Shown one piece after another: positions 1,906 through 56,500 of a DNA stretch of 64,000 nucleotides. The notes under the pieces are model-generated. The model made no database searches, was not told the DNA's origin, and was given only the letters and a program-made list of their open reading frames with translations. The number at the start of each line of letters is the position of its first letter. Positions within the stretch are counted from its first letter, which is position 1. A program made the position numbers and the translations under genes. The DNA comes from Tribonema minus (lineage: Eukaryota > Sar > Xanthophyceae > Tribonematales > Tribonemataceae), in contig JAFCMP010000524.1 of the NCBI GenBank assembly GCA_017506865.1, positions 620,001 to 684,000 of the forward strand, read 5' to 3'.

Positions 1906-1970
1906 GATCTCTGCTACGCCATGGTGCTACATGCTACAGCTACATACCTATCCGCAAGTACTTGTCAATA
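1..1970 (-). mobile_element. LINE copy A, 5' part only (cut by window edge)
   Basis: This segment repeats 5544-7513 at a constant offset of 5,543 bp, with no difference that I could find. It is the 5' end of a second copy of the non-LTR retrotransposon described at 1971-7513, in the same orientation, and it runs off the left edge of the window. Identity ends at about 1970, where this copy meets the 3' end of copy B directly. The two copies are therefore abutted head to tail with no host DNA between them. The lack of visible divergence suggests very recent duplication, or an assembly or unequal-crossover product. Confidence 0.93.
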
Positions 1971-7513: not shown

Positions 7514-7514
7514 T

Positions 7515-10117: not shown

Positions 10118-13100
10118 TCACAGGTCCGGATCTTCAAACAGGGCGCTTAGATCCACTACGTCGGCACTTGGCTGGCGCTGGTGCTGCGCGCTGGCCAACT
10201 TGCGCGACTTGCGCACCAGATCTGATGGCAGGTCGAGTACCGCGTGACCGCCCCTGCGCAGAATGCTGTCGTCGGATGATGCGCGTTCCGTACTGGAGAG
10301 GTGCTGCTCAAAGTGCTTGGCCGCTTTCCTGCAGAACGGGGGGGGAGTTCAACATTGCTGAGGGTTCAGTGGGATTGCATTGTGTTCCCGCAATGGAAGC
10401 CGACGTGCATGCGCGAGCGTGTGGGGACACATGTACGTTCCGTGTGCACCAATTCTAGTCATGATGAACCAGCACAAGGTCGTGGTCGGACTCTACGCGT
10501 CCCCACCGTATTCAAGCTGCATCCCAGTCATTCCGCCATGTCCCTCCTACTCTGATGCATTGTTGCCCACACACCATCTATCCAATGCGCCACGGGTATG
10601 GGGCCCGTCGTCCTGACTTTAACCCTAATGCACCACTGTCCTAGAAGCACGGGTGATTCATCAAGTCATGGCCAACAAAGAGTAAAGCATGGCCACATAG
10701 ATGCACGTGCTGAAACCATCCCATCACAATGACGCAAGTGACACCCAAGTCAACTCCACTCATCCGGACACCCTTATGGTCTTATTTGACGCCGCACATA
10801 GAGTCGAACGCATACACCCCTCAAGCAAGAATGCACAATTCCGTCTTGCTTGTCGTCAACAACACCAGTGGCAACCCTACTGCTGCATGATGTCAGTGAT
10901 GATGTCAGTACCTGAACAGGTCCCGCAGGGCATCTCGCTGCCTGGCGGCCAGAGTCTTCTGGCTGAAGCGCGGGTCCTTGCTCTCTGCACCCCCCTCGGC
11001 TTGTGTGATGGTGACAATCCGCAGCACATCCTCCAGGGATTGCACGTCAGCGTCGCTAACGCCTAAGCGTTGTGGCATGAGGTCATGTGGCAGCAGTGCT
11101 CAGGATGCAGTACTTCGAAGTTTTCATGCAGTTCACATGCAGTTCACCATGATGTGGCAGCAGCGCTCAGTATGCAGTACTTGAAGTTGTCACGCACTTC
11201 ACATGCAGTTCACATGCAGTTCAGAGGGCAACGTACAGCATGACAGCGGAGCTCAGGAGATGGGTATAGGTCAGAGAGTCACAAGACGGAGCAACTGCAG
11301 CTGTTGCAACACTTTCCTCTACGTTAAAGCTGAATCTGGCAAGTGGGCTATAATACACCTTGCAAGTACATGCGAGATATATATGCCTTTGAAGTGATGC
11401 TTCTCTAGAAGCCACCATCACACTTCCATGAGCATGTCGCCACAGCACATTGCGGTCAACAACATGCAGCGCAGAGTGGAGCACAGTGCTGCTTTCAAAG
11501 CCTCACAATGGTTCGCCTGCACCCAAATGGCCGCATAGAGGAGAAGCTTATTGCCACCGCTGCCTGCGAGCACTTCAAGCAACATCCATGGAAACAAGCA
11601 GACGCACGTCAAACACAGTTTCTGCGAGGTACCCAGAGTGCCAAGGCTCACCTGGCAGGGTCAGCAGCAGCTTGCGTGGCTCCTCACTGATGGGCGTAGG
11701 CACCCCCCCATTGCTCTCGAGGTCACTGGCATCTCCGCCGATGACCAGCTTGATGTAGATGACACGTGTGAGCTGGAGCATGTCCCATTCCAGGCCTACC
11801 ATCCATTTGGGCTCTGTGACGAGAGCGTATACGGCTGCTCCCATCATGCTCTTGCCGATCACCTGGCTGTACTTGGGCATGCGCCACACCGCCTGAAGGG
11901 GTTTTGGGGGGGGGGGGGGGGGGGGGGGGGGGGTCAGAATAAACGTGTTTGTGTGAAGTTGGAGGGGGGGGCGCTTGGGACAACACACATGTGCCATGTG
12001 GTACACTAACAGTACACTAGCAGTACACTAGTAGCGCTCGAGATGCTCGCGGTGATTGCTATGATAGCAACGTGCCGTCATGCAGCAAATCCTCTGAGAT
12101 TGGCACACCATTACATAATCGTATCAAGTGAGTATCAAATCACCAAAACGCCTAGGTGAAGGTCAATGACACTGGTAATGCAGCATCGTCTCACACCACA
12201 TGTTCCACTGACCGATGCTGAGAGAAATTACTATTGTGTTGTTGGGCACTGTGCAATTCTGTCGTGGAACAGGCTGGCAGTCTTCCCTGTCTAGGGCCAG
12301 GGTTACGTTACGGTTAGCGGGCCGCCATGCTTAAGCTTGGGGGGGGTATTTCAACGTGGATGATTGCTGTCAGTGACTGTGCAAACCTGAAAGAATCCTG
12401 CGTGAGCACGTGGCTGCAGTGCAGCAATAGAACCACTGTCTCAGGCCACCGCAAAAGCACAGAAGCAGGGCGCCTGTGTTCCTCTATGAAGAATATATGC
12501 CCCCTTGTACATACACACCTCGGTGATCGCCTGGGCTTTCTGATATATATGGTGGCACTGTTTATCTCGTGGCCAATTGCCGCAGCAGCGGCGGCCACGG
12601 TTATCGGTGGAAGGCACTTGCGGCTAACCACACCTTGTCACCTTGAGCTCTACGATCTTTGGATTTGTTTCTACACATACCCCCTTATATTCGTACATAC
12701 CTCTGTGATCTTGTGTGCGCACTTGATGGCGCCACGGCACGCAGGACCATCGGGCCAGCACAGAGCTCCCACCACCAGCATGACCATCGGATAGGCTGTT
12801 TGATCGGACGCTACCAGCAAGAACTGTAACAGCGGCGATGGGCATTGAAGTTGAGTTAGAAGGGCAAAGGCGGCATCAACTTGGTAGCATGCGCACATAT
12901 ATAGAGACAACTGTGTGTGCCCTGGCATATTCGGTGGGGTCATTCAACTGAGAAGTGACCACCAATACGTTTATTGATGTATACTTCAAGTAGAAGTACT
13001 TTGAACGACGCCAGGAGAGGCTGTGCCTGTAACTGCAATGCGGGACTGTAAGAGAGGGGGCAAATGTGGCGGCAAGTTGAATTTGGCAGCATGCAATATA

Positions 13101-16100
13101 GACATTGCCCTGTGTGCGCTTTGATTCGAGTTGAGAAGCGGGCAGACCGAGCAGATATGTGGGCATATGTCAGCCAACTGACCAGTGGCCCCAGTAGCAT
13201 GTTCATCTGTGTACACTTCTACTTCTTTACAGAAGCCGAGGCTTTGGTTGTAACTGCATGCCAGCTCTGTGCTGTTACGATAAAACCACCAGCAATTCTG
13301 CAGGGTTGCAGAACAGGACTGATCACATTATTTCCAGTAAGCGCAAGCAAAGGCAGAGTGCAGGAGGCAGTTATGATTACTCTTTATGAGTTTTCACAAG
13401 CGTCACAATATTTTCAATCGAGCGCGAGAAACGGAAGAGCGCAGGGGGGGCAAGTGTAATAATGAGTCTTGACAAATTTCCTGAGGGCTACCTTTATAGC
13501 GACCTTTGACTGCCTGGAGGCTATCACTACAGCGACCCCAGTTGCAACTGCTTTGGCGACCAGTCGAGTAACATTTCCCAACAAAATACATACACACACA
13601 CACACACACACACACTGAGGTTGAAGTAGGCCTTCGCAGCATGCCATGATACCAGGGTGAAGTTTCATCATGCCTGACAAACATCCACACACACACACAC
13701 TCAAGGTGGAAGTAGTCACTATGCCATGATATCAACTTGAAGTTTCATGGTTTCTGACCTCAGACAGCAGCGCAGCCCTGCTCCTCTTGATCTGGTGCTC
13801 TGCCAGCAGTGCCGCGTTCTGAACTGGGTCCGCAGGGATCTCTGAGAACCATCACCACAGGCCAAAAAGGATTGCCTGTCAGTACGGAAAAACATAAAAC
13901 TAAGGGCCATTTGTCCAGCAGTGAAAACATGGTGTTTCGCCATGTAGGTGCAACTGTGCTTGTGCTGCACGTCACACCTCTAGGCGAGCAGCTGCAATGA
14001 AGTCCAAACCGCAGAAAATAAGAAACTGCATGGTGTACATCATGTAGCCTTGCGTCAAGTTGAGCATCATCCACACAGACGTGTCGCTTGACATGATGCA
14101 TGCTGTCCCAAAGACACCCATGACCTTGCTCGACCGTGAGGCACACAAAATGTTGTGCCAAAGCACTTGTACTCGACTTCTAGACTTCCGGCGGGAAGAA
14201 ATTGGCAGATCTGAATGCTGCCATAGTACAATGCACACTCATTCCATGTTCATGTCAAAGCTGCACAAGCACGGCATCAGTGCGTGAATACACTGCTGGT
14301 GCAGATTTCGGCACCAGCATGAGCTAGACCGTCTCTTGCTGCGCATGTATGTGTACGTAATCCTGTCCGTAATCCAATAACTTGAATACCGAGAAATAGA
14401 AGTGCCAAAAAGTACTGAACCAACACTCTCAGTGTGTGGAATGCATTGACCAGCACATGCGAGTGTACAAAGTTGGGCGTATGTGTACCAGGTGTAGTGG
14501 GAGCACGTATGTATAGATAACCCTAACTTTAATTCTAACCCTAAGTACCCAGAAGTACTAAACACCCGCTCTCAATGTGCGTTGACCAGTGCATGAGAGA
14601 GTGCGAAGTTGAGCATACCTGCTGGTGTAGTAGGGGTGATGTGCAGCTCGCCCTTGAGGGCCAGCAACGACTGCATCATATCACACAAAGTGAAAGCAGG
14701 CAGACAAATGAAAATGAAAGGAAATGACTGAATCACGGAATGTGAAAGCAGGCAGGCCAATAAAGATGAAAAGGCAAATTAATCAATCCGACTGCATGGG
14801 GGACAGTGAGAGCAGACAGACAAGTGAAACTGGAAAGGCGAATCAATTCAATTCGACTGCATCACAGAAAGTGAAAGCAGGCAGACAAGTTAGAATGAAA
14901 AGGCGAATGAATACAACCAAACGTTGGGGTAAGGGTAAGTTTAGCCAACACACACGCAATGGGGCACAGTTGTGCAAAACAAATCACTCCTTTGAGCACA
15001 AGGTCTGTGTGTTGCCTGTCAGCTGCCGCTGTTGCCTCTGCGCTGGGCATTGGCATGGTGTGCTAGCCTGTGCACAAGGTTTTTTAACCCTAACTCTGAC
15101 CTAGCCGAAACTCCCATGCGGCAAAACTGTGTCGTACGTCTGGGCCTCGTCACCAACTCAAACGCTTCAAACAGTAGCCCTGTGCTATGCTACAGCATCA
15201 TTACAGAAAACTCATGAGGCATGCACTGAAGCGGACAAGACATCCGCGATACCGCTGCCATCAGCCGAATGTACGTATGCTTTCTGGATTGACAGGAGCA
15301 ACTTTGAGTGCCCCCATGTGCTGCGGTGCAACCAGTAAATGGCTGATAGCGGTACAGAAGTAAACACAGCATACATACATACCTGTACCAGGTCCACCGC
15401 CTTCTGGGTGCCGCTGCGCTTGAAGTGTTCGGCCAGGAGCTGCCCGCATCACCACATGAACGGGAAAGAGGCATATAGGTTAGAATGTGAAGTTACTTGC
15501 GGAGAGACTTTTAAAAGAAGCAGCAGCATAGAACCATCACTTGAAGTTGTTGATTGGCGCAGGCCAACAACACGAGGCACGCAGCTGCAGCAGAGCCCTG
15601 CTCCTAACCCTAACCCTAACCTTAGCCCTAACCCTAACCCTAAGTAGCTGGTAGGTGATACAGGAGTTGCCGGCATCGATAATGCATGAACATGGAGGGC
15701 AGAAACGATCAACGGTCGAAACAGTGAATCATGTAGTGATTGACATGCTCTGCAGACATCATTCATGGGCACAAAGAGAGACATTACTGCTGAATATTTG
15801 AGCAGATCGTTCAGCCACGCAGCGCCATTCGGTGCGCCTTGCCATTCGTTGTGCCTTGCTGCTCAAAGACATGTGATTCACTGACGTGACTGATTCTCAT
15901 TCGCAGCTTTTCGCAAGTGCATGATCAAAAGCAATGTTGATCAATGACATTTGCCTGCTCCGCATCACCACTGCAACCCTAACCTTAACCCTAGCCGTCA
16001 GCCGCAAACATCACCAATTGCAACTTAACCCTAACCCTAATTGTAGTCTGAGCTGTCCACTCCCGCGTTCGGAGCCGCTTTTCAACAACGCCAACCTGCT

Positions 16101-19100
16101 AGCGCAGGGAATTCCAAGTGAATTTCGTTACGAGAGCCTTGCCGATTTGCTTGAGGCACTATCGCCTGAATGGATGAATGAATGAATGAATGAATTCTCT
16201 GCCGCAGGTGCTGCATGTCTGACCGCGGCTGAGGGGACCTAGCAATTACGCACCAAATATATGCGGTGGACATGACACAACAATAACCCTAACCCTAACC
16301 CCAATGCTAGCCCAAACCCTGTTCCTGACTCTTTGCAACAAAAGGACATGCAGATGCCAGACTTTGTCCGCATTCAATCTTCAAGGCTCACCTCGCGTTG
16401 CTGCTTAGTGAGCTGCTCAGTGTCGGTGGTCATCATGTAGCCACACTCCGTATATAGCCTGGCAGTTGTGTGGAACACGCACAAAGCGACAACAGTAGCT
16501 CGTCAGCACAAGCAAGGCGGCGGTTGGCGTCACCTTGCACACTGCCACTGGCACGAAAAGTACTTGGAAGTGTGTGCGGTATGTATGCATGCATGTATGC
16601 CAGCACACACACGTGTCACAGACATTATACCTCCTTGTCACGTTGTTCAGACTGAATGCCACTGCAGACTGCAGGCACAGTGTCCCAAATCTGCCAACAA
16701 CAACATTGTACAAGAGCAGCAACGCAACTGCACAGGCGCAGCAAACCCCACAACATTGCACTAGAACGATGGGCAAAACACCACATGAACATAGCAAACT
16801 ACCTTTGTGCTCACCAGCACAGCAACAGGCAGTGTAGCTCTGGGTACACGCTGTCCAAAAATGGCGTGTGCCATGATAGTTGCATCTGTGCACTCAAACA
16901 CTAGTGAATGTCTGAATGCCAAACAAACACCAGCAATGTGTCATAGATATGGCAGCCCCGCACTGTAGCTACATGTTTCGGGCCCGTTGTAGTCAAGTCA
17001 ACAAATAATTTCAGTAATAACTGACTTTGTGGCCTCCTCGTCTGTGTCCGCGCGTGGAGACTGCGGAGCACCCCCGACCGGCAGGTTGCCAGATGGAAGG
17101 CTGGGAGCCCACGCCACACTGAACCGCCGCAGCAGGTGGATGAACAGCGGTCCCGCGAATGCCTGAAGGTGGCTGAGATAAACGATAAGAGTGACACACA
17201 ACAAAAACATTGTGTGAGCCAGGTGCTGTTGGTGTGGTGCTCAACTTAGCATCTTGAAGGAAGCAACAAGCGAATCTGCATGTGTTGCACCGTGCTCTGC
17301 AGGTAGCTGAAGTGGGGCGCCGCGGATGCAATCGCAGTGTGGCATAAGGACCGTAGAGCATTCTGCTGCACCAGATTGCAAGCATGACAAGTCGTCAAGG
17401 ACTGGACTGTTGCTCTGAACAACAACGCATTGCAGCAGCAACAACAGCGCACATAGCACGTCTAACGCACAGCATGATAACACAGCCGGCCCTTGGACTA
17501 GTTGTGGACCTAAATCTTACCCTCATTTCAACCCTAACCCGGCCTTGCACTTCAGGTGCAGTTTTGGGAGGGTATGTGGCTCTGGGAGTTAACACAACCG
17601 AAGGGCCTACAGCAACGCCAGCCTGAATGGCGCTTGACGCCAGGGCTGGGATCTGCGTACTGTGCATGCGTAAAATCTCCGCCACAATGAGTTGGCTACA
17701 TCACTACATCAAGATCTGCTGTTTGCCGGCACCTGCTTTACCGAGACAAACTTGTACACAGAGGTGATGTCATGCCAATCAACAGCTATGGGCAGCACTG
17801 CACTAGAGCAATGCTACTCCAGAAGTGTTTGTTAGCAATGCTACTTCGAAGTATTTGTTAACATTATATCACAGAGAGGCAACAACGCTCACATGCTGTG
17901 ACTTGCGCAGAGGCACAATAAGCATGCATCGCACGTCGTTGTGGCGTTGCTCGCAACCACAAGTTGAAGTTGCAAAAGCTCGGCAGGAGCATTCCTGTGA
18001 GCACAGGACAACACATGAGGACATGCATGCTCGTATACTAGCACGCCTTGGCACTGTTACCCTACGTAGAGCGCAGGTGGGCAGTTGATGATGTAGGACT
18101 CAGCAACGAGGCTGACAAAACGTGCCACCGCAAACATTGCCGTTTCTAGACAAGTAATGGGGAGAAAGGCCCTTTTTTTGACCCAAGAGTGTGCCAGTGC
18201 TCAGCAAGGATGTAGAAAAGTGTATAGTACCCAGCCATTATCTTTGTCGGTACTGGTACCTGACGTAGAGCGCAGGTGGGCAGTTGATGGCGTAGGATTC
18301 AGCGACGAGGCTGACAAAGTGCGCCACTGCAAACGTCTCCTGGTGCTGCAGCCCCACCAGGATGCTCTCCTCTAGAACTTTCCCTATCTGCACACGACAA
18401 AAACGTCAACACGACATCACGAAGGGGCGATTCGGTCAATGGTTTGAGACTGTAGTCTTTGGTGATGGTTAGTCAGAGCACAAATATTGCAAATCTGCCT
18501 TAGAGTGATGTCATCAGTGTTGGTTTTCTGACCACCAGTCAAGCAATCTGCCACCCAAGTGCCCCTGCAATCTGCCCGTACATGGATATGTCATTACTTC
18601 AGGTGCATGCGCGCCTGATCAAGCTGCAAATGATGTGATCACACCCTGGCTGAACTTCTAGCGCCACTGCCTCAAACGGCATCTCAGTCTAGCCTCTAAC
18701 ACAACTCTCTCTGACTCTTATCCCCCCCTCACCCCCCCCCCCCCCCCCCCTCACCCCAATTGCCAAGAACCTCAATCAATTACTGAGTCAAGGCGTATGA
18801 AAGCAGAGGTCAGAAAAGGTGAGCCACTGCAGAGGTGGATTGCTCACTACTGTAGTCAAAATTAATAGCCGAATCACCTGTTGCTGATCGGCCATGAGAA
18901 AGAGGGCCCTGTGCTTGCAGGCCATGGCTAGCAGCCCATAGGCACGCACACGCAGTTGGGAGAGCCAGGTGGCCCACTTCATGCGCAAATCCCGCCTGCA
19001 GTACAGCAGTACACGAGTACAGTACACAAGTACAGTGAGCAACAGAGCCACGAGGCCCACTGCATGCGCACGTCACGCCTGCAGTACACCAGTACACAGG

Positions 19101-22100
19101 TACAGTATACGAACACACGAGTACAGTACGTGAGTACACAAGTACAGTGAGCATTAGAGCACCTGGATGAGGGGGATTCAACTAAGTCATAGTCACTTGT
19201 GTCAGCTGGCAATGATATACGAGGTAGCACAGCAGGTCACGCACCGGCGGCAGCAACTTTCATCAGCATGACAGCAGCAGCTGTCCTATGCTGAGGAGAT
19301 TACATTCCTCTCATCAACACAAGTATGACTTCAACACATGTGGCAATGTGGTGATGCAGCAAATATGTCATACCACACTGAATTAGGGTATGTTCAGGAT
19401 CAATGAAAGCGCTCTGCATGCCCCGCTTGAACTTGAGCCATACCTGGACGCAGAGTTGGGCTGAGTCTCTGGCAGGCCGCACGTGATGATGCATTTTGCC
19501 TGCTCCTCTTTTGGCAGCCTGCCAATGGTGCGAGAACGGTACATGATGTTCGTGAGTGGTTGGCGATGGTTATCATGTACGCTTTCAAGATGATATATGT
19601 TGGCTCATTCAAAAAAGAGACGGACTCACTGCATCCGAGGGGAGGGAAACGTAAAACTGTGAATGAAGAATTCAAGGTGTGGTAGGGGTGATGACTCACT
19701 GAATCACTCACTGACTCACTCGCTAGTCTAGCAGAACAAGTATCAAGATGACATGGGTGCTTCTGCTCGTAAACAACCAAAGTCTTGGATTCACAGCACA
19801 CTGCACCCGCAGAAGTGCGGACAGCGAGCACTCAGAGTCGCTGCAGAGTCAGAGTCTGTGTTGCTGTACACTGTCACGGTCACGCTGAATGGAAGCTGAG
19901 ACATTGGCTCGATGCGGCAACGATGTCTCATCCTTTTCACAACCACGTGAACACTCTCAAAACGTTGACCGGGCTTGGCACAACAGATGCACGCATGACA
20001 CATACATACATACATACATACCCCACAAAGTAATGTACCTACACCATGGAAGCCGGGTGCCAAAAACGGTTTACTGGCACGCAGCCCTACATAAATACAT
20101 CTCCAACAAGGGCATGAGCGGCACGGCAACGTGCTTTCAAGCTCAAATTGCCTACTATCAGGTACATGAACTTTGCCCATTGCATGAGCCCAACTTGATT
20201 TTGTGTCCACATGCATACCATCGAGCAACACTGTTGAGAGCATTGACGCATGCAAACTACTTCCAAGTTGAAGTACTGCTCACCCCAGCACAGCTTGTCC
20301 ATACGGGTGCTTTGCCAGCATGTTTCGGGTAGCTGGCTCCCAGATCAGGTGAAGAGTCCTGCTCACAGCCAAGATCAAAGCCGGGAATGCTGCGTCAGTT
20401 CCTGTACCATGCTTCACCATCAGCTGGGGTAGGCAGGTATGTAGAGTATAATAATATGCATGATGACGGTGATGTTGAGAGCCTCTGAGATCTTTCTGAT
20501 GCTAGGAGCAGAAAAGCTCCTGATCCCCCCTGCTTTGTGCAAGCATTCGAGTCGGAGAGTTTGCTGATAGCAGCGCAGCAGTCCTGACATTATAGCATGC
20601 CACCTCGTGAGCACTTGCAAAGCAGTATATGAAGGACTGTGACTGGAACACCAGTATCCCATCAGGCGCACGCATGACTAGAATGACTCCCCAAACCACT
20701 AATCAATGCACTCACTCTCAGAAAGGCATGCATAACAACCCCGAGCTACCCCCCCCCCCCACTCCCCCACTGGCAGGTGCAGAAACGTATAGGAACCTAC
20801 TTGGTGGGCTGCAACGTTGCATGCACCATTCAAGCGCGTGCTGCACAATGGCTGTCACCCTTCAAGCGCTGCTGCTGCTACTGCACGGGCTCCAGGCACA
20901 TACACCCCTACACAAGCCTGTCACGGAAACAAGCGCATCGACCAGAAACCCATTGAGTGTAATGACATGGTGCTACTTGCAAAGACTTTTCAGCGCTTTG
21001 CAGCTAACTCGTGGCAAGAGCATGTGCATTTGCGGCACATGCGACCCTCAGGCCGTAAGCCCTTCAATCAAATCAACACGGTCATGATGCTGTGCTTGGG
21101 CGTATCTGGTCACAGGGAAAAGGCTGGTGTGTTGTTTGTGTCAAGTGCATCATATACAAGCAAAAGGCTGGTGTTGTTGGTACTACGTACAGAAGTGGCA
21201 CGTCTATCCTGCCACATGGAGTACGCTTCTAACACCGAGGCGATGCCGACTAACGCAAAAAAAAAAGCAAAGCCAGGCAAGTACTGCACCTGATGAAGCT
21301 GAGCAGGTTTGGCAGTATTTGTGGCCATATTTGGGCAAAGGGATTGGCCGCCAACACCGCCTCCGGAGACAGCGCTTGACCCTGAGAGAGCAAGACAGTT
21401 ACAAGACAGTTACAAGACATTAAGTCAGGGCATCACGCAGCGCTCGTGCTCAGAGTTTGCTGCTTGGCAGGAAGGTCTCAGATGTGTAGTATTCAGAAAG
21501 TAAGCTGCATACGAAGGCACCGCTGCACCAGCCACGCGCTGTGTTTTATGCGCTCTGTCGCGATGCAGTGCGCAGACCGTCCTGCGATTATTCATTTTAG
21601 GGGGGAGTCATGAATTGGCTGTTGTTGTGAGGTAGAGACGTCTAATCAGTAGCATATGGGTAATAGATACTGAGCAACAACAGTGCGAATCATTCACCTC
21701 AGGAGTATATGCTGCCTTTGGCAACAGGGGTACACAGATGCATGAAATAAAGCCGTGAACACACATCATGTGAAGCACACTCAGTGGCATAGTGATGCAG
21801 GTAGTGCTACTGTCGTCATTCACAACCACTGGCAACCTCTGCATCACGGCATGTGCAGGTGGTGCAGGTGGTGCTACTGTACTACTGTAGTACTCCTATG
21901 TACAGTTGTACTACTACAGTTATTCACTAGCGACCACTGGAAACCTCTTCATCACGGCAGAGCATGCATATACACGCGTGTTCTCTAATGGTATACTTTG
22001 AAGTATACATACAGCAAACTAGTCCGGCATGGCAGGCGTCCTTCAAGTACATGTTGAGCGATACAAAAGGCACTTGAATAGCAATCGTCGCGTGACTTAC

Positions 22101-25100
22101 ACCGCACGCATTATTCTCACTATCATGGTGCACTGCTTTTGGATGGTACAGCCGCTGCTGTGACTGGCTGCATTGAGTCTAGCAACCCTAGGATAGTGGT
22201 GCTCCAACTTCCATGAGCAAGACACTGGCGTTACTGCCCATGTGTCCACGATATCAGTATGACGCATGTGCGCTGCACCCGCACGCTGAGAGCTGTGGTC
22301 AACGAATATGTTCAACTGCTTACCTACGACACTGATGCATATGCTCATGTATATGTGTGTGTGCCACTCCTGTGACAGTTGACCCAGACCTTGCTGACAA
22401 ACCAAAGAAGAAAACTCAATTGAAAGCCCCTAGCGCTAGCTCCATCAACAAACTGCAAGAGCTAGTTTTAGCGGTATGCATCACAAAGGGGTATGTATCA
22501 CATGTGCTTCATGCATGAACGCAGCCTGCCTTAGCGCCAGGTGCATACATGCATGTTGGAATTGCAGGCTCTCATGTGTCTGCACCAGTAAGTTGAGTCT
22601 AGTCTCTCGACGATTAGTTTCAGTCTCCCCAGGGCATGACTGGCTTTAACGCCCAGTGGTTCCACCGTGCTTTGCCTGAACCTGTGCTTTATATTCACTT
22701 CACGCTGTACAGCAACTAGAGTTCTCTCCAGCCTGCACTCTGTCTCCTCTCCAGACGTGTTCCAAGCTTCCTACTTCCCAACATGCACATGCGCATGCAT
22801 GCACATGCAGCTCACCTGCACATAAAGGGTATGGTCCATGGTCACCCTGGCTTCATCATCGGGCCGAACGCGCTTTGAAACCGCCAAGAATGTTCCCAGC
22901 ATGCTCCTGCAAATAATGCACGCCGTAACGCAGATCATGATGCTGAGCCAGCAGCAGCAGCAGCAATATCTTGTGGCATAAGGTGGTGAGAGGATAAAAC
23001 TGCCTATTTCGATGAAGCTTTACTGGCATGCTTCTACAGGCAGTACAATGCACAGCAACGAGGGAGCTGAACAGCTGACGGTGTGATTGACTGCTGTGCT
23101 GGTGGGGATATTCGTTGCCAGCGTACGTTGAAACATTAGAGTGAGATGCTACCCTGTCAACCAGTATCAATCACAGTGCTTCCTGGGAGGTGACTGGCGC
23201 TGCCAGCGAGGTTTGTGTAGATGGAGTTTGCGTGCATACATAGATACATACAGCTACCTTGCCCTAACCCTAACCCTAACATTATCGCCCCTCTCTGCAG
23301 CACGCACACTACACAATGTCAAGCACACAGCACAGCTCAACAATGTAGCATTGTGGTGCATGCTAGCTTACATAATGTAGGTAACATTATTCATAAATGT
23401 ATGTAGCAGCAGGTTACATACATACCTACACACACCAGGCACCTCCCCATCATACCACATGATTCCTCCATTATGTGCACCTGGCATATATTTCTAAGCG
23501 CAAGCACAGCCTGAAGCGACCGTCATGCTAGGGTCTGAACCCGTGTTGATGCTGCAACTTGAGCCTCTGGGCTTATTATCTTTATTGGATAATCCAATCC
23601 TCAGGACATGCAACTTACGTGAATGAGGTGTAGACTGCCCAGCCTGACTTGACGACTGCGGGGTTTGTGGGGCCTTCCGGTGCATCCACGCCTAGCACGT
23701 GCAGGAAAGCCTTTGAATGCAACACGACAGGGACACGGTGAACAATGGTTCGTAAACAGTGGAGCAAGTAGGGAAGTGGGTACCAGACAAGTGGAAGCGA
23801 GATAATACTCTCGTTTCCACATACATGCACTTGAAGTGGGATATATCGAACAGTGAGCGCAATTGGTCAGTCAAAGGACGAAATGCATAGGGACACAGCG
23901 CGTGAGTGCAATACCAGCCAAGGTGGAAGCGAGCAACACATTCACCAGATACAAAGAGCTGCGCAATAGCCGCGTCCAGCGCAGCGTGTTTAACCCTAAC
24001 CCTAACCCTAACCCTCACCCATTGTCACTGCAAGCAATAGCATGCTCTGCGGCACGTGCCCAGATGCGCGAAATACTAGCAGACAAGTTTTTGAGCTACT
24101 AGGCAGTGCTCAAAAGCAGTAGCCAAATACAACTTCATATGCTTATGTTGCTGTTCCAAGCTGTGCAGCACTAACGCCTCTTGCCAGTTAGAAGTATATG
24201 GTTGATGTAGGCCTTTCATCATCATTGCGCTTGCTGCTAATCATCAAGCAATTTCATCACCAGGACGGAGACGAGCAGCTTGTATAGCACTCCACGCACA
24301 GACGCATCTCACTTGCTTTAGACAATGAATCCGCATGAATGTGCAGAAAATCCCAAATCTGTACGCCAAAGAGCGCTTGATAGAGAGGGTCGATATGTGT
24401 ATACAAGCCAGCTCTGCTCAGCCCCTACATGGCCCTGTCCCTACTTGAGTGATCTGGCACAGTAGCGAGCACGACTTAATTGTATCTGCACAGATTTCTC
24501 TAACATGCCTATTCCCAATGCATACCTCCTGTGCTGGGCTACCAGCTGGAGCTGGCCTACCAAACACGTGAGCGCTTTCCATACTGAACATCCATGCCTC
24601 AAATGCTAGATTAAGTTTGCACACAGAAGTCTTTTGGCTCCTGTGGACATGCTGGCAATGTGTGACTCGTGGTTAATTCTGCAGCAGCGGCGACCACGGT
24701 TCTTGGTGGAAAGCACTGGCTGCTAACCACACCCTGCCACCTACAGTAGAGCTCTCCGATCTTTTGATTTTTTTTCATACAATTCATACATACATACCTG
24801 CGGAGTCGCCACTGCGGCCGCTGTGTCTTGCCCTGACCACGCGGCGACAGCTGTTGCGCAGATGTCCGTCACAAAGGCCCTAGACAAGCGACAAACAACA
24901 GGGAGTAGTTCATTTATATAACTTCAACAGATGAAGCGAGGGTTAAGATGACACCCTTTCCAAGTACTTTGAAGTATGCATTATTCTGGCCCAAAGAATG
25001 CTGTTGTCACAGCCTGCAGCTGATGGGTGGCACATTGAAGCTTAAGGGGTTGACTCTCCTTAAGGTGGTGACTCTCCTACAGGTGCTAAGAAGTCCAGCA

Positions 25101-25494
25101 GTAACCCTAGCCTCACTTAGTCGTACCACTCACAGACGCAGATGCCCGTGTCCCGAGGAGGAAGACGACAATGCCGTGGAACTTGAGAGTGCGCCACATA
25201 CGTACGTGTCACATACTTCGATGTGTGAAACTGCGACTTTCTACCCAGTGGTACTGCAACATGGCAACCCAACCGCTTGTAGCAATCTTGAGAGGAAAAA
25301 CCTTTATCACTACCAACACTTCATGAATGAATATGAATCATGAATAAGTGTACCATACCAACGAACCCACAAAGGTGATGTGCATACCTGCGTGTCGCTG
25401 TATCGGGCACTGCATTGACAGTGATCACTATCATCTCGTACAGCTGCTGCTTTTGCAGTTCTGTCAGGGTCCCCGTGTCCAGCAGCTGCTTCAC
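10118..25494 (-). CDS. XPO5/HST: Exportin-5 exons 19-34: C-terminal HEAT repeats and C-terminus
   Basis: Exon 19 starts VKQLLDTGTLTELQKQQLYE, matching HVKQLLSNELLLTQMEKCAL. Exon 22 (MLGTFLAVSKRVRP) matches YSILGVVKRTCWP. Exon 23 (PALILAVSRTLHLIWEPAT) matches the plant LLKLLRVLHSLWSPSV. Exon 24 has WLSQLRVRAYGLLAM. Exons 25-26 (AINCPPALY, GPLFIHLLRRFSVAWA) match VKSCPADMW and HPLFIHCQQALSSAWP. Exon 31 (MLVVGALCWPDGPACR) matches the plant CLETFTWTDGEATTK. Exon 32 ends RKLLLTLPG, like VLLSLPCL. The last exon ends VVDLSALFEDPDL, resembling the short Phe-Asp/Glu-Pro tail of the family. The stop codon occupies 10118-10120. Confidence 0.9.
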
Positions 25495-45748: not shown

Positions 45749-46017
45749 GGCAGCGCTGTCCCCCAAGCAGCTGCAGTCTCAGGCCCTGCTAGCACTTATT
45801 CCCGGAAGTGCGTATGCTTCGTTACTGCTGCTGAGAAATGTCCAGCCACCGACGGCTAGGTTGAAAAGCGAGTCGCGATGATATTGGGTGGCAGTACCTG
45901 CATCCCCGAAGGTGCTACCCTCAATAAGGAGCAGCTTCGGATCTTCTCTGCAGCAAATCATGAACTGCAACATTGAAGTTCTTCGGCTTCGAAGTGATCG
46001 AGTTAGCCTCGTCCACT
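45749..46017. promoter_or_regulatory. Divergent promoter region between exportin and GCK genes
   Basis: Only 269 bp separate the start codons of the minus-strand exportin gene and the plus-strand GCK gene. Both promoters and both 5' leaders must lie in or overlap this stretch. I see no convincing TATA box, and the exact transcription starts are unknown. Confidence 0.6.
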
Positions 46018-49000
46018 ATGGCAAGTGCAGCAATGCTCAAGCGGAGCATGCAGGCCTGTGGCGTGGCTGCAGGTGCTGGCGCTGCATGCCTGGTGTTGCG
46101 CCGCACACCCGACGACAGACCTGACCACAATCAGGAGCCCACGACACACGGATTGCTATTGCGTAGAGGTAGCAGCGGTGTGAATGATGGTCCTGGTATT
46201 GCCTCGATGCTGCAGGCACGGGCTGCGAGCTTCGCATTGCTATCTGTACTGCACGCCTCAGCTGCGGCAGCACCAGCATCATCAGAACCGCCACACCCCA
46301 GCAGCGAAGTCGAACACGCCGCAGTAGAAACCAAGCAGCAGGACGAGGAGCCGGAGCAGAAAGGCGAAGGCGGTGCAGCGCCGAAGGGAGAGGAGGACTG
46401 GTGCAGTCCGTACCCGGAGGAGGACTATTTTGTGGATGAAAACGAGCCAGAGGAGCCCACCACGTGCAGCCTGTGCATCATGATGAAGAATGGACCCTGC
46501 CCCATGACATTCAGGCGTTGGGCCAGGTGAGATCTTCAATAAGCTACAAACTCGTGCTATTTGCCACCTGTCCTGTAGAGATTTTGTCTTCAGCTGAACA
46601 CAATTTCTCTGCCGACAGCAACCGTGTGACGTCCGAGTGTTGAACCTTGCTCATCACATGCGCTGAGCTGGATAAGATTGTCGTAATTTGCAGTGTGTCA
46701 GCTAACTACTGTGATTGTACGTCTTGCAGCTAAGCTTGCGCCATGTCCACCAGCCAGAATGTAGACCTGGCAGGATGGTGCGGCTAAGGCTTTGCCTCAC
46801 TATGTTGCCTTGTTGACAACTACATTCATGCCTGTGCCTGGGTTACAAAGTAGTGCTACTTGAATTTTCATAGAATGAAGGCATGCTCCCAACATATGTT
46901 GTGTTGCACAAGGTAGGATCAGTATCATTATTATGCGGTGTCGGCTGCACTTCGGTGTGAATACTGTGCAGTCACAAATTTGGTTTGGAAGTATCACGTT
47001 GCCCACCCATCCAGGCATTGACATTGACAATTGTATGCATCAGCAGTGCAGGATGCAAATGTGTCAGGTCGGAACCCCAAAAGCTCATGTGCCAGTATTG
47101 CCGTCAGGCTTACACACGTCACCGAACACGAACACTAACGTCAGTTCTAAGGTCATGCAACTGCGGCAGCCAATTTCCCACATGATGCGTCACTGAGCTT
47201 GCCAGTCCTGGCAAATGCATTGGCTGCTGAACCGCTCTATTCATAGCTATAATGGAATGGCTGCAACAACCACTTCCTGCTGTATACCCAGTGTTCAAGG
47301 AGTGCTGCAAAGAAGTGCTGCAAGGAGCGGCTTTAGATGACGATCACTGACCAGCGTTTCTTACCACCCTGCTCAGCACCTCGGTCCTCTTGCTATCCAT
47401 ACTTGATGACGATTATGATCATCATCACACGAGCTGCTGTGACCTGGAGTCGTACTCATGACTGTGACTCGTTACTGCCCCCAGGAAAGATGAATTGGAT
47501 GCCATCGTGGCCCAAGCTGCCATGACTTGGGACTCGTACTCATGACTGCGACTCGTAGCTGCCCCATGAATGGCTGCAGGTGCACAGAGGTGGCTGTCAT
47601 TCACTCAAGAGTTGTACTCATGATTAAGACTCACTGCTGCCCCTTGAATGGCCACAGGTGCACAGAGGTCGCGAAGAAGCGTGGCGAAGGCGATAAGGTG
47701 GCGTGCCGCTGCTCCAACAGTCATGGTGGTCATGACTTAGACTCGTACTCATGATTGCGACTCGTTGCCGCCCCATGAATGGCTGCAGGTGCACGGAAGT
47801 TGCGAAGGAGCGCGGCGAAGACGACAAGGTGGCATGTCGCTGCGCGAACATATTCATGGACCTCTACCGCTGCATGAATGAGAACCCCAACTACTTCATG
47901 ATTGAGAAGGATGGACAGGGCAACGACACAGCTGAAGACGGTGAGTAGCAGGGTATGCATGTATGTAAGCTTGATATGTATGTCATACAAGTGCATATCA
48001 TGAACGAGAACCCAGACGTCTTCATGATTGAGAAGGATGGACAGGGCAACGACACAGCTGAAGACGGTGATGTACGCATGTATAGCTTGGTACATGTATG
48101 TCTGTCATAGCTATTGATGAGCGAAAGGTCATTCAGTGTCCCGGTTTTGCTGATTTCGGTGAGCACACGAGCTCTGAATCCTGAAGATCTATGTCTAGAC
48201 TACCTACATCAAAGCAGTTGTTGCCTTGGCGATGAGGCACACAACGTGTTGTAATTGAAGTTCATGATTGTGCTACACAGAAGTATATTCAATGAAGAAG
48301 TTTGGGTGACGCAGGTGTGCTGCATGCCTTGCGTGCTTGAGGTAAGGGTAAGGGTTAGGGTTAGGTGACATGGTTGTGTATGTACTCTCACACTGCAGGT
48401 ACGTGCATCAAGTAGCCACTTCTGTGTGCTTGTCTCCGCAACGTTCAGCTCTGCTGTGAACACACTCCCACGATCATGGCTCAGCCCAGCTATAGAGCTA
48501 TGCACCTGACACTCACATGTCACGGATGCTACTGCGCTATGATGATAATTGCAAAAGGTCATGCGAAGCGCTGTGATGCCTGTCAAGTGTCACCAGCATG
48601 TGTGTGGCAAAGTGCAAAGTGCCATCCGGGTAATCAGTAGCATATGACCGTAAGCTGAATTCATTGGACTTGCCGAGTCAGAGTCGTTTCTTTTCAAGAG
48701 TCGCACGGTTGTCATCAACGCTCACCCCGCTCCCGCTGTGTCAGCAAGCACAGCTGTATTGTACAGCCATGGAGTTGTGCGTGGGCACAAGGCATGTGCA
48801 CACACAACACCTGCGCCTGTCTGCAGCAGACAGGTCGTTGTGACCTTGCAGCAAAAGCTGGCAGCTGTTGTGTTTTAAGTAGGTAACCACCCTCATTGAT
48901 GGGTGCTGCAGATTGTACAGTGGTATGACATGTGTTGCTGTGATGGCCATGTGCACCGCTATGATTGTGCTGTCAGCCTACTTGATGGTGGCATTTTGAC

Positions 49001-50582: not shown

Positions 50583-53500
50583 TCAGCTGTTTACAGTAGA
50601 CGCGCTGCCCATGGTGCTAGGCCGCGAGCGCAAGCTAGGTGCGCACGCGCTGGCGCTGACCTTCATGGCCCCCTGCTGCCCCCCGCCCCCCATCACCAAG
50701 TTCGAGTTGGAGTTGAGGTTCGAGTACTTTCGCGTGAGCAACCGCGCGGGCATTACCCCCCCGTGCGACCCCCCTTCTTGCGTCCCCATTTCATACTGTT
50801 CGTACGTCCAACCCAGCTTTGCTAGCGCTAGCAGATGCTTAGTAGCGTCAATGTTGGACTGGCTTCGGAAGCGGCGCAGGCGCGCTCTGCCCTCTTCGTT
50901 GAGTCTGCCATTCTTGAGCTCCTGGTGAAGGAGGTCTTCGTAGGCGGCGAATGCGGAAGTGATGGCCTTGCGTTGGTATCCCGTGGTGTAGTCTGAGCGT
51001 GTCCAGCCAAGGTCCAGAAGCATCTCCTCATGTTCCTCTGTCATACGGGAGAGTGGGCGAAGAATAGAACAAAAATGTTTGAGCATGTGCAAGCGTGTTG
51101 CGCTTACTGACTCATGTGCAAGCGTGTTGCGGCTGGCACCAGAGTTGAGTCGCCAATGGCAAGGCACACGTGGCCTGTGATGTACTACATGTGGACCAAG
51201 GTTATTGCTAATAAGAGCATGTACTGCGTTCACTGTATATCAACATCAAGACAACGTTGCGGCTCATGACTCATGACAACTCATGTTGCCATGGATCCAT
51301 GACACACACAACCGCCGGTTTCTGCAGTGTCACGCCTGGCCTCGCCCCCCCCCCCCCCCCCCCTTCCCCCTGTGGGAGTAACCCATACATACATGCGCAC
51401 ACAAACTCTGCAGCGTGCGGTGGCTAGCAGTATGACCCTTCCTGCTGTGCAGGATGCACTGCGCGCAGAGTACGACGCACAGCAAGCTCAGCGGCAGCGC
51501 ACGATAGACGGCTCACAGATGTACGCTGTGATGTGCGGGAGTGGATCTAATGACATCACAAGTGCACTGCACGCCTGATCTCGTCAACAGCCCGCCTTTC
51601 CCCCATGAGAGTAAGCGATGCATGCACACACACACACACACGTCTGCAGCATTGCAGGCATGAGACTTATAACAATCAGCCATCACAAGTGCGCTGCACG
51701 TGCTGCTGACCTGTGGTGATGCCGTGCGCTTCTCTGTAGTGCTGCAGCTTGTTCTTTTCACAGGGCAGCACCTCACCGCCACCCAGCGCCGTCAGTAGCA
51801 GCTGCCGATACCTGCATGAAACAAAGTGTCGGCGAACATATCCCAGTAAGATCCTTTGTTTATGTCCAGCCCACAGCCATATGATCGAATTAAATTGCTT
51901 TGCTCATGTCCAGTCCACAGCTACATGATGAAATAGAGGGCTCTCAAATAGAGGTTTAGCGAATAGAGGCCCCTCATGTGTTCCAGATTAGTGAAAGCAA
52001 CCTGTTGTGTAAATGAAGGCGTGTGCAGTACTTAGCCTCAAGTGGCTGAACTAACCCTAACCCTAACCCTAATGGCCCCAGCTGCACAGCATCAGATCTG
52101 TTAAAAATGGTTGACCAGCAGAACCTGCACTTCTGCTGGAGCTCAAGAGCAAAGCTGCAGGCACACCGCACTTGCAACTGCAAGCTCCTTGAAACCATTC
52201 CCCTGCACCAACAACACGCAAATGCATCACTTCCCCATGCTGCCCCCCCTGGTGCAGTGAGAAGTGTCAAAGGCAAAACTTCATGAACAGAATGCATAAT
52301 GCATGAAAATGTACACATGCACACACAATCATTACTGCACACCACCAACACTTGCCTGATATGTGGGTCCCTACTCTGATCCAGCTTGCGTGTCAGGTCA
52401 GCGCTAATGGTGACCTTTTGCACCCTAAAAAGTGTTCATAGCTTCATGAATATGTACATGTACGCATACAAGCACAATTGGCACATTGCCGGCACTTGCC
52501 TGATGTGCGGATCCCTGCTCTGGTCCAGCTTGCGGGTGAGATCCGCGCTGATGGTGACCTGCATGGCATTGCCCTCCAAGGGATGCGTCTTGAGGTAGGC
52601 GCGCAGCAGGTGGAAGTCCCACGCAAACACGCGGCACTCTGTTGTTGTGCGCACTGATTGCGCAGGCGACAAAGACGACAAGGGGGCAGCGGTCGATGGT
52701 GATGTTAATCATGAATCACATTGATTATTGATCACTGGCGCAGCAGATTGAAGTCTCAATGTTGATGATTCAACATAGGCGCAGCAGGTGGAAGTCCCAG
52801 GCAAACACGCGGCACTCTGTCGTCGTGCGGACTGGTTGTGCAGAGGACCAGGACGACAAGGAGGCAGCAGGTCAACCAATGTGATGGTGATGTTGATCAT
52901 CAATCACAGGCGCAGAAGGTGAAAGTCTCACGAAAACACGTGGCACTGCGTCGTCGTTGGGCCCGATTGTGTGGACGACATGGGGGCGCAGTAGGTTGAC
53001 GGTGATCAACAGTCACAGTGCTGATTACTACAGTACATGCATGGACAGAATTGGGCGCAGCACGTCAATGTTCATCATTAATTACTGGATGATTGGAGCT
53101 CATGACGCTGCTGATTACGCAAAGTAGCGGGGTCTGCATAGGGGGTAAAACAGTAGCATTGGCGGCACTTTAAAACCGAGGCAAGTGTTCTGCAATGCAG
53201 AGCCTTGCCGCCACACCCGGAACTGCGTGCTGCAGTGTAGCTTAGGGTTAGGGTTAGGGTTAGCGCTGCCCAGCAATCAGCAGCTGCACGACCAACTAGA
53301 CCAACACAGGCCACCATGCCGCAGACGAGCGATCAGCAGCTATGAAGCGTTCATGCAGCTTCAATGTTGAAGTTGAAGTGGGGGGTTGTACAGACAGCAT
53401 CCCCAGTCTCACCGTATACTAGTTCATGTGCAGAGCTACAAACTTTGCTCACTTCTCCACAGCACTTTCAGGCTTGTGTGAGCACATGTGGAGTTTTGCC

Positions 53501-56500
53501 ATCAGCAAAAGCTTCAATCACAAGAGCGCTCACGCCGCTTTGGGTACTGCACAGGGCACAATGCTTGTGTCAACGTTACTGTCTGTTCAACGCCACTTCA
53601 TAGCGCAGAGCTATCACTCTTGTCTCCTACTAGCAGAACACACTTGTGTCAACGCTACTGTCTGTTCAACGCCACTTCATAGCGCAGAGCTATCACTCTT
53701 GTCCCCTCCTAGCAGAACACACACTTTCACTGTTCTATTTCCTGCAGTGCTGCTGATGCACAGAGACTCTCCCCACTTCAAGCACGGTCCACCAAAAAGA
53801 GCTTTCTGGGATTTATTGAAGTTGCACTCTTGAGCAGCTAGCTCACCAGTGGACCTACCTACTGATACACAGGCCATCCTTGTTTTAGTTTAAACCAGCG
53901 TTTCGCCCAAGATGCGTGTTTTACACAGGCTGCACCAACACTGAAGGGCTTCTTGAAGTTAAGCTCTTGAGCTCACCCGTCGTGCTACTGATGCACAGGC
54001 TCGCCTCGCTCTCCTACTGCCTTTGAGTGCATATATTGAAGATGCTCACCTGTAGTGCTACTGATGCACCTCTCCTCACTCTCCTCCTGCACTTGAAGTT
54101 TCCTCATATATTGAAGATGTGCTTTTGACAGGCACTCTTGAGCTCACCTGTAGTGCTGCTGATGCACAAACTCTCCTCGCTCTCCTCCTGCTCGTCCTCC
54201 TGCGCAGCCTCCCCCGCCGCCACCGCCGCCACCCCCTGCTGCTGACCCCCCTTCCCAACCTCAACACCCCCCTTCCCAGCTTGAACACCCCCCTGCCCCT
54301 CCCCGTGCGGCGCCGCCACCGCCACCACGCGGCCATCGGGATCAATCTCCCAGTGCTCAGGGTCCAATTCCGCGGCGAGAGCTGCGAGCAGGGAGTTGAG
54401 CACTGCCCTCTCGTTGTCGCGGTCGCGCTCGTGGTCGTGGACCGTGTTGAGGAAGCGCAGGAAAGCCATTGAGCCCACAAATTGATGACGGGTGAGGGAG
54501 CCGATGGGGTCGCCGTCGTGGTCCGTCACGCCGACCGTGCCGTCTGTGATGAGATACAGCTGGAGGGGCAGCGGAGGGGGGGGGGGGTCAATGTGAGCCT
54601 GGTGCTGTGTTGAACATGCAGGCGCAAGGGGGGGGGGGGGCGACGTTGGATATATATGTGCATGGCGCTGTGTTGAACAACCGCAGTTGATGACTGAAGC
54701 CTAGACGAGCACGCGAGGGAGCTGATGGGGTCGCCGTCATGGTCCGTCACGCCGACTGTGCCGTCCGTAATGAGGTACAGCTGGTGAAGCGAGTAAACGG
54801 GGGGGGGGGGGGGGGAGAGGGGGAAGGGGGTTGAATAAGTATGTGGTTGGCGCCTAGAAGAGCACCATGTGATTCGTAATATTCCACTGCCGTCGTGGTC
54901 CGTCACGCCGACTGTGCCGTCAGTGATGAGGTACGGCTGACGGCGCAAGGGCGGGGGGAGAATTTGGATATATCTATGAGCTTGGCGCTGTTTGAACAAC
55001 CGCAGTTGATGACTGATGCCTAGTAGAGCACATGTGAGTCGCTGCATTCAGCTGTGATTGGTTGATAGTTTGTTACATCACCCTGTGGGTCATCATGTCC
55101 AATGTGCCACAGTGATAAGGCCCTGCTCAGGGGTCAGCTAGGGTTAGGGCTAGGCTAGCCCTGAGCTAGCTGTTGCTGTGGTATCGTGCTGTGTTGGAAT
55201 GCTTCAATGGACTGTTGCATTTGTCATCTCCGTGTGCAATCTTTTACCAACACTCCATGATAACAGCCATCATGATGGTGCTGAGGGCAAGCTGGATGGC
55301 AACGACTGGGGGGTGCAGAGATGACTGTGGCGGGCAAGCTGAATTGGCCCGCACCATGATGGCATGCTGCATGATGAGGCTTTCGGAAGCTGCGGACAGC
55401 GTCACTTGACAATAGCCATGTACTTCTTCCAAATTCATGGAGCAAGTTTATAGAGCATCCCAGTGGGACCGTGTGGGTTGCCTGCCTGCCCAAACCTTGA
55501 CGCGCAGCTGTGCACAGCAATGGCAGCCTGACATACTGGTACAGAGTGCACCAACTGCCACCATCCACATTGCCGCCTTAGGGTTAAACATGCTGTTGTG
55601 TAAGGTGGCACGCCTCTGGTGAAGTACTTCAACTCTCAAGTACAAGCAACAAAATGGCGAACACTCACCTTATCGAGGGGTTGGCCACAAGCGGCAATGG
55701 TGGTGCCAGCTGGCAGTATCTGCTGCTCCGCCAGCCTCATGACATGCATCAGCTCCACTGCACTCAGCCCTGGAGTTCACACAATCAACAGCGAGCAGTG
55801 TGTTGCTGAGTGCACAACATGTATGCATTGCCCCAATGCCACCGTCTCAATTGCATACTTTGACCTGATGTGATAGTGCGTTACAGCTGTCAGCGTGACA
55901 TGCATGCATATATAGAAGTACATAGCGTCCAGCTGCTTACAGCCAATAGTTGCACTGAACTATGCTTCAGAATAAGGTCCGGTAAAACATTCATGCCACT
56001 CAGGCAGCAGCACAGCGCCGGCACATGGTACGAGCTTCGTGGATCAGATTATTCTGCAATAGGTTGTCAGAAACAATCATGGGGGCGGACTCGCGCAGCA
56101 CAGGGGCCAAATGATTCCGCAGCGATGCACTGAACTCATGCAGCAGCTGTGAAGGGCCGCTAAATCCTCACAGCCGTCAGTCTACAAGACATACTTTGCG
56201 CAAGTTCTGAGTGCCAGGATAGATGCGCTGAGCTTTCGCGTGTGTCTACAAGCTCTGGCAGCAGACACCGCGCCTCTGCTCACCTACATAGTTTGCAGAA
56301 CATCTCCTTTGACGTGTGACCACAAGTTACCGAGCCTGCGCCTTTGCTCACCTACATAGTTTACAGAACATCTCCTCATACACCGCCCTCTCCTCCGCAT
56401 CACAACTCTCATACACTAAACCTGATCCTATCCTAACTACGACCGCACCCTTGCTGTGGCAGAAGGGGCACTTTTGCTCAAGCAGCACAATGTAACAGTC

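What the first reader, a model, noticed from the sequence alone, without database searches (positions are those of the whole stretch)
10912..55769. Exon edges and splice sites repeatedly duplicated in tandem into neighbouring introns, in three separate genes
Seen directly: copies of exon ends or exon starts, with their splice site, lie in the adjacent intron for exportin exons 4, 5, 6, 7, 9, 12, 13, 14, 15, 17, 18, 24, 25, 29 and 31, for GCK exon 2 and for Popeye exons 3 and 4. Copies occur on the donor side, the acceptor side or both, usually decay with distance from the exon, and often keep GT, GC or AG. Exon interiors are not copied elsewhere. That argues against whole-exon duplication and for an intron-growth process centred on splice sites. 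Tandem duplication producing splice sites is a known route to new introns, but I know of no genome region where nearly every exon border shows it.
Basis: partly seen in the sequence, partly recalled or inferred. Interest (0 to 1): 0.88.

Follow-up and report, generated by a model that had tools for sequence, protein, structure and literature searches.

The report
Exon-edge tandem duplications filling introns
In three genes of what looks like a green alga, short stretches spanning the border between coding and non-coding DNA have been copied again and again into the neighbouring introns, a known but rarely reported way for introns to grow, here unusually dense.

Summary
I rebuilt the genes: an exportin-5/HASTY gene (31 exons used), a Popeye gene (5) and one GCK-like exon. 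At 22 of 74 exon edges (17 of 37 exons) a direct copy crossing the splice junction lies in the adjacent intron; the same probes found inverted matches at only 2 edges, both telomere-like. Copies reach about 80 nt into the exon; 0 of 9 exon midpoints are copied. "Nearly every exon border" is an overstatement. Of 34 repeat arrays, 19 cross an exon edge against 6.5 to 8.2 in random placement; with the unedited automatic exon list it is 16 against 9.1, p 0.004. A forward simulation with constrained exons and identical detection gives 15-16%. The copies look near-neutral, while changes on the exon side are at third codon positions. So these are most likely tandem duplications of junction segments that lengthen introns, rather than alternative exons, introners or artefacts. 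The same thing is published in amphioxus as "mirages". What may be new is the lineage, the density and the excess at splice junctions. RNA data, long reads and genome-wide counts are missing.

The parts
10118..45748 (-). Exportin-5/HASTY gene, 31 exons used in the analysis (X1 45653-45748 to X31 10118-10328); a few small or missing exons are uncertain
   Evidence: own gene finder; phmmer to exportin-5 3a6p E=5.4e-22; Pfam Exportin-5 2.1e-20, Xpo1 9e-13
50661..56985 (-). Popeye-domain gene, exons P1 56521-56985, P2 55669-55769, P3 54148-54559, P4 52500-52638, P5 50661-51037
   Evidence: Pfam POPDC1-3 E=4.3e-8; gene finder; start of P3 corrected by reading
47789..47940 (+). GCK-like exon with acceptor-side copies (47521-47594, 47608-47724) and a donor-side copy ending near 48070
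   Evidence: weak Pfam GCK E=0.025, below cut-off; sequence read
42532..42862 (-). X4 donor-edge array, two copies (42700-42765, 42532-42625)
40861..41222 (-). X6 donor-edge array, unit about 118 bp, two intronic copies plus the exon
   Evidence: TRF period 115, 3.0 copies
40186..40281 (-). X7 donor edge and copy 40186-40220 (30 nt exon + 5 nt intron)
   Evidence: seen in sequence
36897..37108 (-). X8 donor edge; copy 36897-36964 (61 nt exon, 58/61 identical, + 7 nt intron)
   Evidence: there numbered X9
33998..34237 (-). X11 acceptor edge; copy 34193-34237 holding an AG|GT
   Evidence: there X13; the automatic gene finder itself split the exon here
32256..33260 (-). X12: donor-edge array 32256-32591 and acceptor-edge array 32695-33260
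   Evidence: (there X14)
31282..31445 (-). X13 donor edge with two copies, running into AACCCT-type repeat
   Evidence: there X15
30134..30612 (-). X14 acceptor-edge array (81 nt of exon copied)
28161..28579 (-). X16 acceptor edge with two copies whose exon parts are identical to the exon (22/22, 21/21)
   Evidence: (there X17)
26738..27063 (-). X17 acceptor-edge array, period about 125
   Evidence: there X18
18961..19110 (-). X21 acceptor edge and copy
   Evidence: there X22
18050..18334 (-). X22 donor edge and copy 18050-18135 (70 nt exon)
   Evidence: there X23
14400..14912 (-). X26: donor-edge copy (14400-14501 vs 14543-14634; found by BLAST, not by the probe scan) and an acceptor-side array of about 65 bp units that stops about 10 bp short of the junction
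52302..52980 (-). P4: donor-edge copy 52302-52416 (10 mismatches, all at third codon positions; AG|GT at its outer end) and acceptor-edge copies 52779-52908, 52910-52980
53741..55031 (-). P3: donor-edge array 53741-54191 and acceptor-edge array 54494-55031
56270..56567 (-). P1 donor edge with copies 56347-56402 and, shorter, near 56270-56308

Best explanation
These are tandem segmental duplications of about 60-240 bp whose unit spans an exon-intron junction ('mirage'-type repeats). The copy attached to the exon body stays the real exon edge; the other copy or copies become intron and decay almost neutrally, so the intron grows from its exon side. Shown here: the copies, their direct orientation, their position on the outer side of their own exon, the excess at edges, and the near-neutral decay. 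Inferred: each began as a small tandem duplication, for example fill-in and end joining of a break with staggered ends, and the real site keeps winning because only it has the rest of the exon beside it (exon definition). Also inferred, and less sure: breaks or duplications start more often near exon-intron junctions in transcribed genes, which would explain the excess.
For: 22 of 74 edges have a junction-crossing direct copy; inverted matches at 2 of 74 edges, both beside telomere-like repeat. Coverage falls with depth into the exon and with distance into the intron, from 0.21 of bases at 0-99 bp to 0.02 beyond 900 bp, not quite evenly. Repeat pairs are 0 in four stretches outside the three genes (8.0-10.1, 45.7-46.9, 48.3-50.7, 57-64 kb); the fifth, 1-8 kb, has 11 pairs, all within one GCT-rich stretch at 3.36-4.04 kb. 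19 of 34 arrays cross an edge versus 8.2 (free) or 6.5 (viability-constrained) expected, none of 1000 reaching 19; versus 15-16% of arrays in 48 forward simulations that include exon constraint and the same detection. In ten sets with two or more copies, sites where the exon differs from two agreeing copies are 12 of 12 third positions, while copy-specific changes are 7, 11 and 19 at codon positions 1, 2 and 3. Several arrays are close to head-to-tail (X6, X12, X14, X17, GCK). Small tandem duplications by fill-in of breaks with 3' overhangs are an established class (PMC8355091, abstract).
Against: Some copies keep the exon part at 84-100% identity but show no homology over the rest of the expected unit (X8, X13, X22, P1, one P3 donor copy: z -0.3 to 1.5) or only weak homology (X11, X16: z 2.6, 2.3), which a plain tandem duplication of that age should keep. 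Probe by probe, edges (24 of 74) are hardly above all intron positions (21% of 1693), because every edge copy also makes intronic hits; the contrast with 9.3% of 1384 outside edge arrays depends on arrays I chose to exclude. The excess shrinks with the unedited exon list (16 vs 9.1). Copy-specific changes still lean to third positions (19 of 37). No RNA, no reads, no relatives.
Confidence: 0.62

Rival explanations
1. Random local tandem duplications everywhere in introns. Purifying selection removes those that damage exons, and the constrained exon side makes edge copies easier to recognise; there is no preference for junctions.
For: Tandem duplications inside introns also occur (15 of 34 arrays cross no edge). 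The likely host group is rich in short tandem-organised repeats (Haematococcus lacustris 47.3% repeats, PMC7617258, passages). The first-pass position scan gave only 20 of 66 edges against 22% of intron positions.
Against: Array-level tests: 19 vs 6.5-8.2; 16 vs 9.1 with the automatic list. Simulated detection bias is too small: 15-16% of arrays against 56% observed. Repeats thin out with distance from exons.
Confidence: 0.2
2. The copies are functional: alternative or split exon pieces, using AG|GT inside the copied exon part to make a new intron (Rogers/Hellsten type), or splice-site decoys kept by selection.
For: P4 donor copy: 10 of 10 mismatches synonymous, AG|GT at its outer end. X11: the gene finder itself chose a split at AG|GT. 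Over 19 edges, 63 of 91 mismatches are at third positions. GT/GC or AG kept in 27 of 30 copies.
Against: Polarised changes put the pure third-position pattern on the exon side (12 of 12) and a mixed pattern on the copies (7, 11, 19); splice dinucleotides (0.89-0.91 identity) are kept no better than the exon side (0.88-0.95); 3 of 104 changed codons are in-frame stops (earlier exon list); most copies have no AG|GT at the right place (read by eye, no call counted it).
Confidence: 0.13
3. Assembly artefact: collapsed or joined haplotypes produce false duplications at exon edges.
For: No reads available; H. lacustris, a possible relative, was reported as putatively diploid with heterozygosity 1.65% (PMC7617258, passage).
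Against: Copies differ by about 10% on the exon side and 24% on the intron side, far above that heterozygosity; some arrays hold two or more distinct intronic copies; no N in the window.
Confidence: 0.03
4. A mobile element (introner-like) that inserts next to splice sites.
For: Two introns (after X19 and X28) share about 180 bp starting at the donor site.
Against: In the 250 bp at intron ends of the exportin and Popeye genes that is the one strong homology between different introns (score 164; the next, 74 and less, lie near the shuffled maximum of 60); each array copies its own exon, not a shared element.
Confidence: 0.02

Closest known systems
'Mirages' of amphioxus (globin BflGb6 and BflGb9, Adh3, TnC, PGBD5)
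   Same: [quoted passage not shown] PMC3902484 passage).
   Different: Not an animal gene set (my judgement from the weak match to human exportin-5 and the GCK-like exon); 22 of 74 edges over three genes in one 64-kb window; some copies more diverged than the 81-100% given for BflGb6; splicing and haplotype instability untested here.
[quoted passage not shown] Hellsten 2011; potato RdRp)
   Same: Tandem duplication crossing an intron-exon boundary; the potato case duplicates the 3' end of an intron with the 5' end of the exon (PMC4974935, abstract and results section; review PMC3443670, passages). Rogers and Hellsten known to me through these texts and recall.
   Different: Here copies mostly sit inside existing long introns beside their own edge and lengthen them; P4-D and X11-A are the two I noted as able to give a precise new intron.
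Introners
   Same: Large numbers of intron changes in one genome (PMC9860276, start of abstract in a listing and two passages).
   Different: Introners are one family in many introns; here each array is a copy of its own exon edge.

Membership tests
Mirage (tandem duplication of exon-intron boundary) | direct copies that span an exon-intron boundary, lying in the adjacent intron | tested here: met
   22 of 74 edges, alignments
Mirage (tandem duplication of exon-intron boundary) | both donor and acceptor borders affected | tested here: met
   13 donor, 9 acceptor
Mirage (tandem duplication of exon-intron boundary) | head-to-tail minisatellite-like array | tested here: inconclusive
   close to head-to-tail at X6, X12, X14, X17, GCK; at X8, X13, X22, P1 and one P3 donor copy the rest of the unit is not alignable, at X11 and X16 only weakly
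Mirage (tandem duplication of exon-intron boundary) | many but not all copies keep AG/GT | tested here: met
   27 of 30, counting GC
Mirage (tandem duplication of exon-intron boundary) | normal splicing not disturbed | not testable with these tools
   no RNA data
Mirage (tandem duplication of exon-intron boundary) | copy number varies between haplotypes or somatically | not testable with these tools
   one haplotype only
[quoted passage not shown]
   arrangement possible at P4-D and X11-A, splicing unknown
Introner | one sequence family present in many introns | tested here: not met
   one strong pair only (X19, X28) among intron ends of the exportin and Popeye genes; only this window could be tested
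Mutually exclusive or whole-exon duplication | whole exon copied | tested here: not met
   0 of 9 midpoints of exons of 150 nt or more copied; depth profile ends near 75 nt

The most novel reading that the evidence does not exclude
In this lineage, introns grow mainly by a duplication process that starts at exon-intron junctions of transcribed genes (transcription- or splicing-linked breaks filled in as tandem duplications), acting at roughly a third of all exon edges genome-wide; mirages would then be a general, lineage-independent form of intron growth rather than an amphioxus oddity.
Probability: 0.3. Interest if true: 0.78.

Novelty: new member of a known kind. Interest (0 to 1): 0.58.

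Why it matters
How introns get longer, and why splice sites turn up in duplicated form, is usually argued from single cases. A region where 22 of 74 exon edges carry copies, with the decay readable against a constrained exon, turns junction duplication into something that can be dated, counted and tested with RNA. It also raises the question of how the spliceosome picks the right site among near-identical neighbours.

Tried and rejected
Tried without result: no whole genome is held for the window. Relatives: viral contigs with a Popeye exon and with an exportin exon, genome contigs with an exportin exon, a pattern from the shared X19/X28 segment in viral contigs: nothing. Rfam: no match at gathering score. 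phmmer of a single exon gave haemoglobin matches at E 0.005 and worse, and one TetR-family match at 0.9, which I took as chance.

Considered and rejected: coding function of most copies. I first read the third-position excess (63 of 91) as coding constraint on the copies; the sets with two or more copies showed that the pure third-position changes lie on the exon side. The 10 of 10 in P4-D remains the one suggestive case. Detection bias as the whole cause. Introners. Literature: ten paper searches; in them I met mirages only in lancelet papers, but the library holds only open-licence papers and I saw listings and passages, so I do not claim that nothing exists for algae.

Exons X8, X11, X14, X26 and P3 were corrected or added after I had looked at repeat regions (homology and reading frame decided, but it is not blind). 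Five predicted pseudo-exons that duplicate an adjacent exon were removed before the test with the automatic list. The dubious exons 39120-39216, 38493-38511, 36537-36636, 34211-34232, 30009-30027, 24526-24551, 22816-22846, 19444-19518 and 12519-12530 were left out of the curated list. Low-complexity pairs and telomere-like pairs under 60 bp were dropped before arrays were built. BLAST missed the X7 copy, which the probe scan found, and the probe scan missed the X26 donor copy, which BLAST found. The GCK assignment rests on a sub-threshold match and on the sequence. In one search three rows (P4-D, X17-A1, X14-A2 in its numbering) were out of register and are not used. One search counted two spurious GCK rows; one search repeats the count without them. 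In one search at least two copy-specific mismatches (start of X12 donor copy 1) are end-of-alignment artefacts and were not removed.
Full report
Genes. The window is eukaryotic. Its joined protein matches human exportin-5 (3a6p, E=5.4e-22) and Pfam Exportin-5 (2.1e-20), Xpo1 (9e-13) and IBN_N (2.8e-4). A Popeye gene lies at 57.0-50.7 kb (POPDC1-3, 4.3e-8) and a GCK-like exon at 47.79-47.94 kb on the plus strand (weak, E=0.025). AACCCT-type runs lie in introns; this motif was reported at the scaffold ends of Haematococcus lacustris (PMC7617258, passages). That, the gene content and the codon use suggest a green alga, perhaps of the Chlamydomonadales, which I could not prove. Searches use an earlier exon numbering; the numbers below are the final ones.

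The copies. Self-comparison finds 69 direct repeat pairs within 1.5 kb in the 9.5-60 kb stretch, which form 34 arrays in the gene territory after dropping low-complexity and short telomere-like pairs. The alignments at edges show exon end + donor copied downstream, or acceptor + exon start copied upstream. A 61-bp probe at each of the 74 edges of the 37 exons finds a direct copy at 24, of which 22 cross the junction, 13 at donors and 9 at acceptors. In shuffled flanks the highest of 5050 scores was 32, against a threshold of 30; one edge (X28-D, 31) is within that range. The same probes reversed hit at 2 of 74 edges, X12 (30) and X13 (39) donors, both beside telomere-like repeat.

How deep and how far. 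In exons of 110 nt or more, 40% of bases within 15 nt of an edge have an intronic copy, 33% at 30-44 nt, 16% at 60-74 nt, and 1% or less beyond 75 nt. None of nine midpoints of exons of at least 150 nt is copied, although 71 of 298 probes lying wholly inside exons, nearer to an edge, do hit. In introns, covered bases fall from 21% in the first 100 bp to 2% beyond 900 bp from an exon, with one small rise to 8% at 800-899 bp. Four stretches outside the three genes hold no pairs, and 7 of 556 probes in them scored 30 or more. The remaining outside stretch, 1-8 kb, holds 11 pairs, all in a GCT-rich stretch at 3.36-4.04 kb.

More than chance? Rotating all arrays together gave 7.7 (sd 2.1), 0 of 926 shifts. 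With the exon list, before I corrected any exon but without five duplicate pseudo-exons, the count is 16 against 9.1 (p 0.004; 3 of 926 rotations). A forward simulation with random duplications of 60-240 bp, intron substitutions and indels, exon change only at third positions, and the same BLAST threshold and clustering gave 15-16% of arrays at edges in 48 runs. So recognisability does not explain 56%. A plain probe count is less impressive: all intron probes hit at 21% of 1693, because each edge copy has partners in the intron; outside edge arrays it is 9.3% of 1384, but which arrays to exclude was my choice.

How the copies evolve. Over 19 edges, mismatches between the exon and its largest copy are 15, 13 and 63 at codon positions 1, 2 and 3. 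In ten sets with two or more intronic copies, sites where the exon differs from two agreeing copies are all third positions (12 of 12), while copy-specific changes are 7, 11 and 19. The exon is under purifying selection and the copies are close to neutral, with a third-position lean (19 of 37) that I cannot fully explain. Identity is 0.88-0.95 on the exon side and 0.76-0.77 on the intron side from +3 on; the splice dinucleotide (0.91 at donors, 0.89 at acceptors) follows the exon-side level. There is therefore no clear sign that copies are kept as splice sites. The P4 donor copy is an outlier: 10 of 10 differences are synonymous and its outer end is AG|GT, so a precise new intron is possible there. 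X11 is a second candidate, since the gene finder split it at AG|GT by itself.

Mechanism. Shown: direct copies, outer side of their own edge, edge excess, near-neutral decay, arrays close to head-to-tail at X6, X12, X14, X17 and GCK. Inferred: origin as small tandem duplications; fill-in of breaks with 3' overhangs followed by end joining makes such duplications in human and mouse cells (PMC8355091, abstract and section list). Inferred: exon definition keeps the true edge in use. Open: why edges are favoured. Also open: at X8, X13, X22, P1 and one P3 donor copy the exon part is 84-95% identical but the rest of the unit is not alignable, and at X11 and X16 it is only weakly alignable, which fits either fast intron turnover or short patch copies with a spacer.

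Known or new. The kind is known: amphioxus 'mirages' (PMC3087553, abstract and passages; PMC3902484, one passage). What seems new here is the lineage, the density in one window and the statistical excess at edges; my ten searches of an open-licence library do not exclude earlier reports. I file it as a new member of that kind; the splicing and instability features of mirages could not be tested.

Noticed in passing
window 1-1980 and 5544-7527: A direct repeat of about 2 kb, 99.7% identical with no mismatch in the first 1900 bp, about 3.5 kb apart: long terminal repeats of an element cut by the window start, or an assembly duplication.
   Followed up: partly
window 12549-12701 and 24649-24798: Two introns of the exportin gene, after X28 and X19, share about 180 bp starting at the donor site; the one strong homology between different intron ends. 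No hit in viral contigs.
   Followed up: partly
window 7764-7828, 15603-15643, 23991-24020, 31129-31158, 32307-32548, 36318-36400, 37462-37490: Interstitial telomere-like AACCCT/TTAGGG runs in introns and between genes; at X12 and X13 they are part of the edge arrays.
   Followed up: no
window 52302-52416: Donor-edge copy of Popeye exon 4 differing from the exon at ten third codon positions only, with AG|GT at its outer end and a GC donor like the exon's own: may be a translated alternative.
   Followed up: partly
window 53564-53722: Two 79-bp tandem units, 96% alike, deep in a Popeye intron with no exon edge.
   Followed up: no
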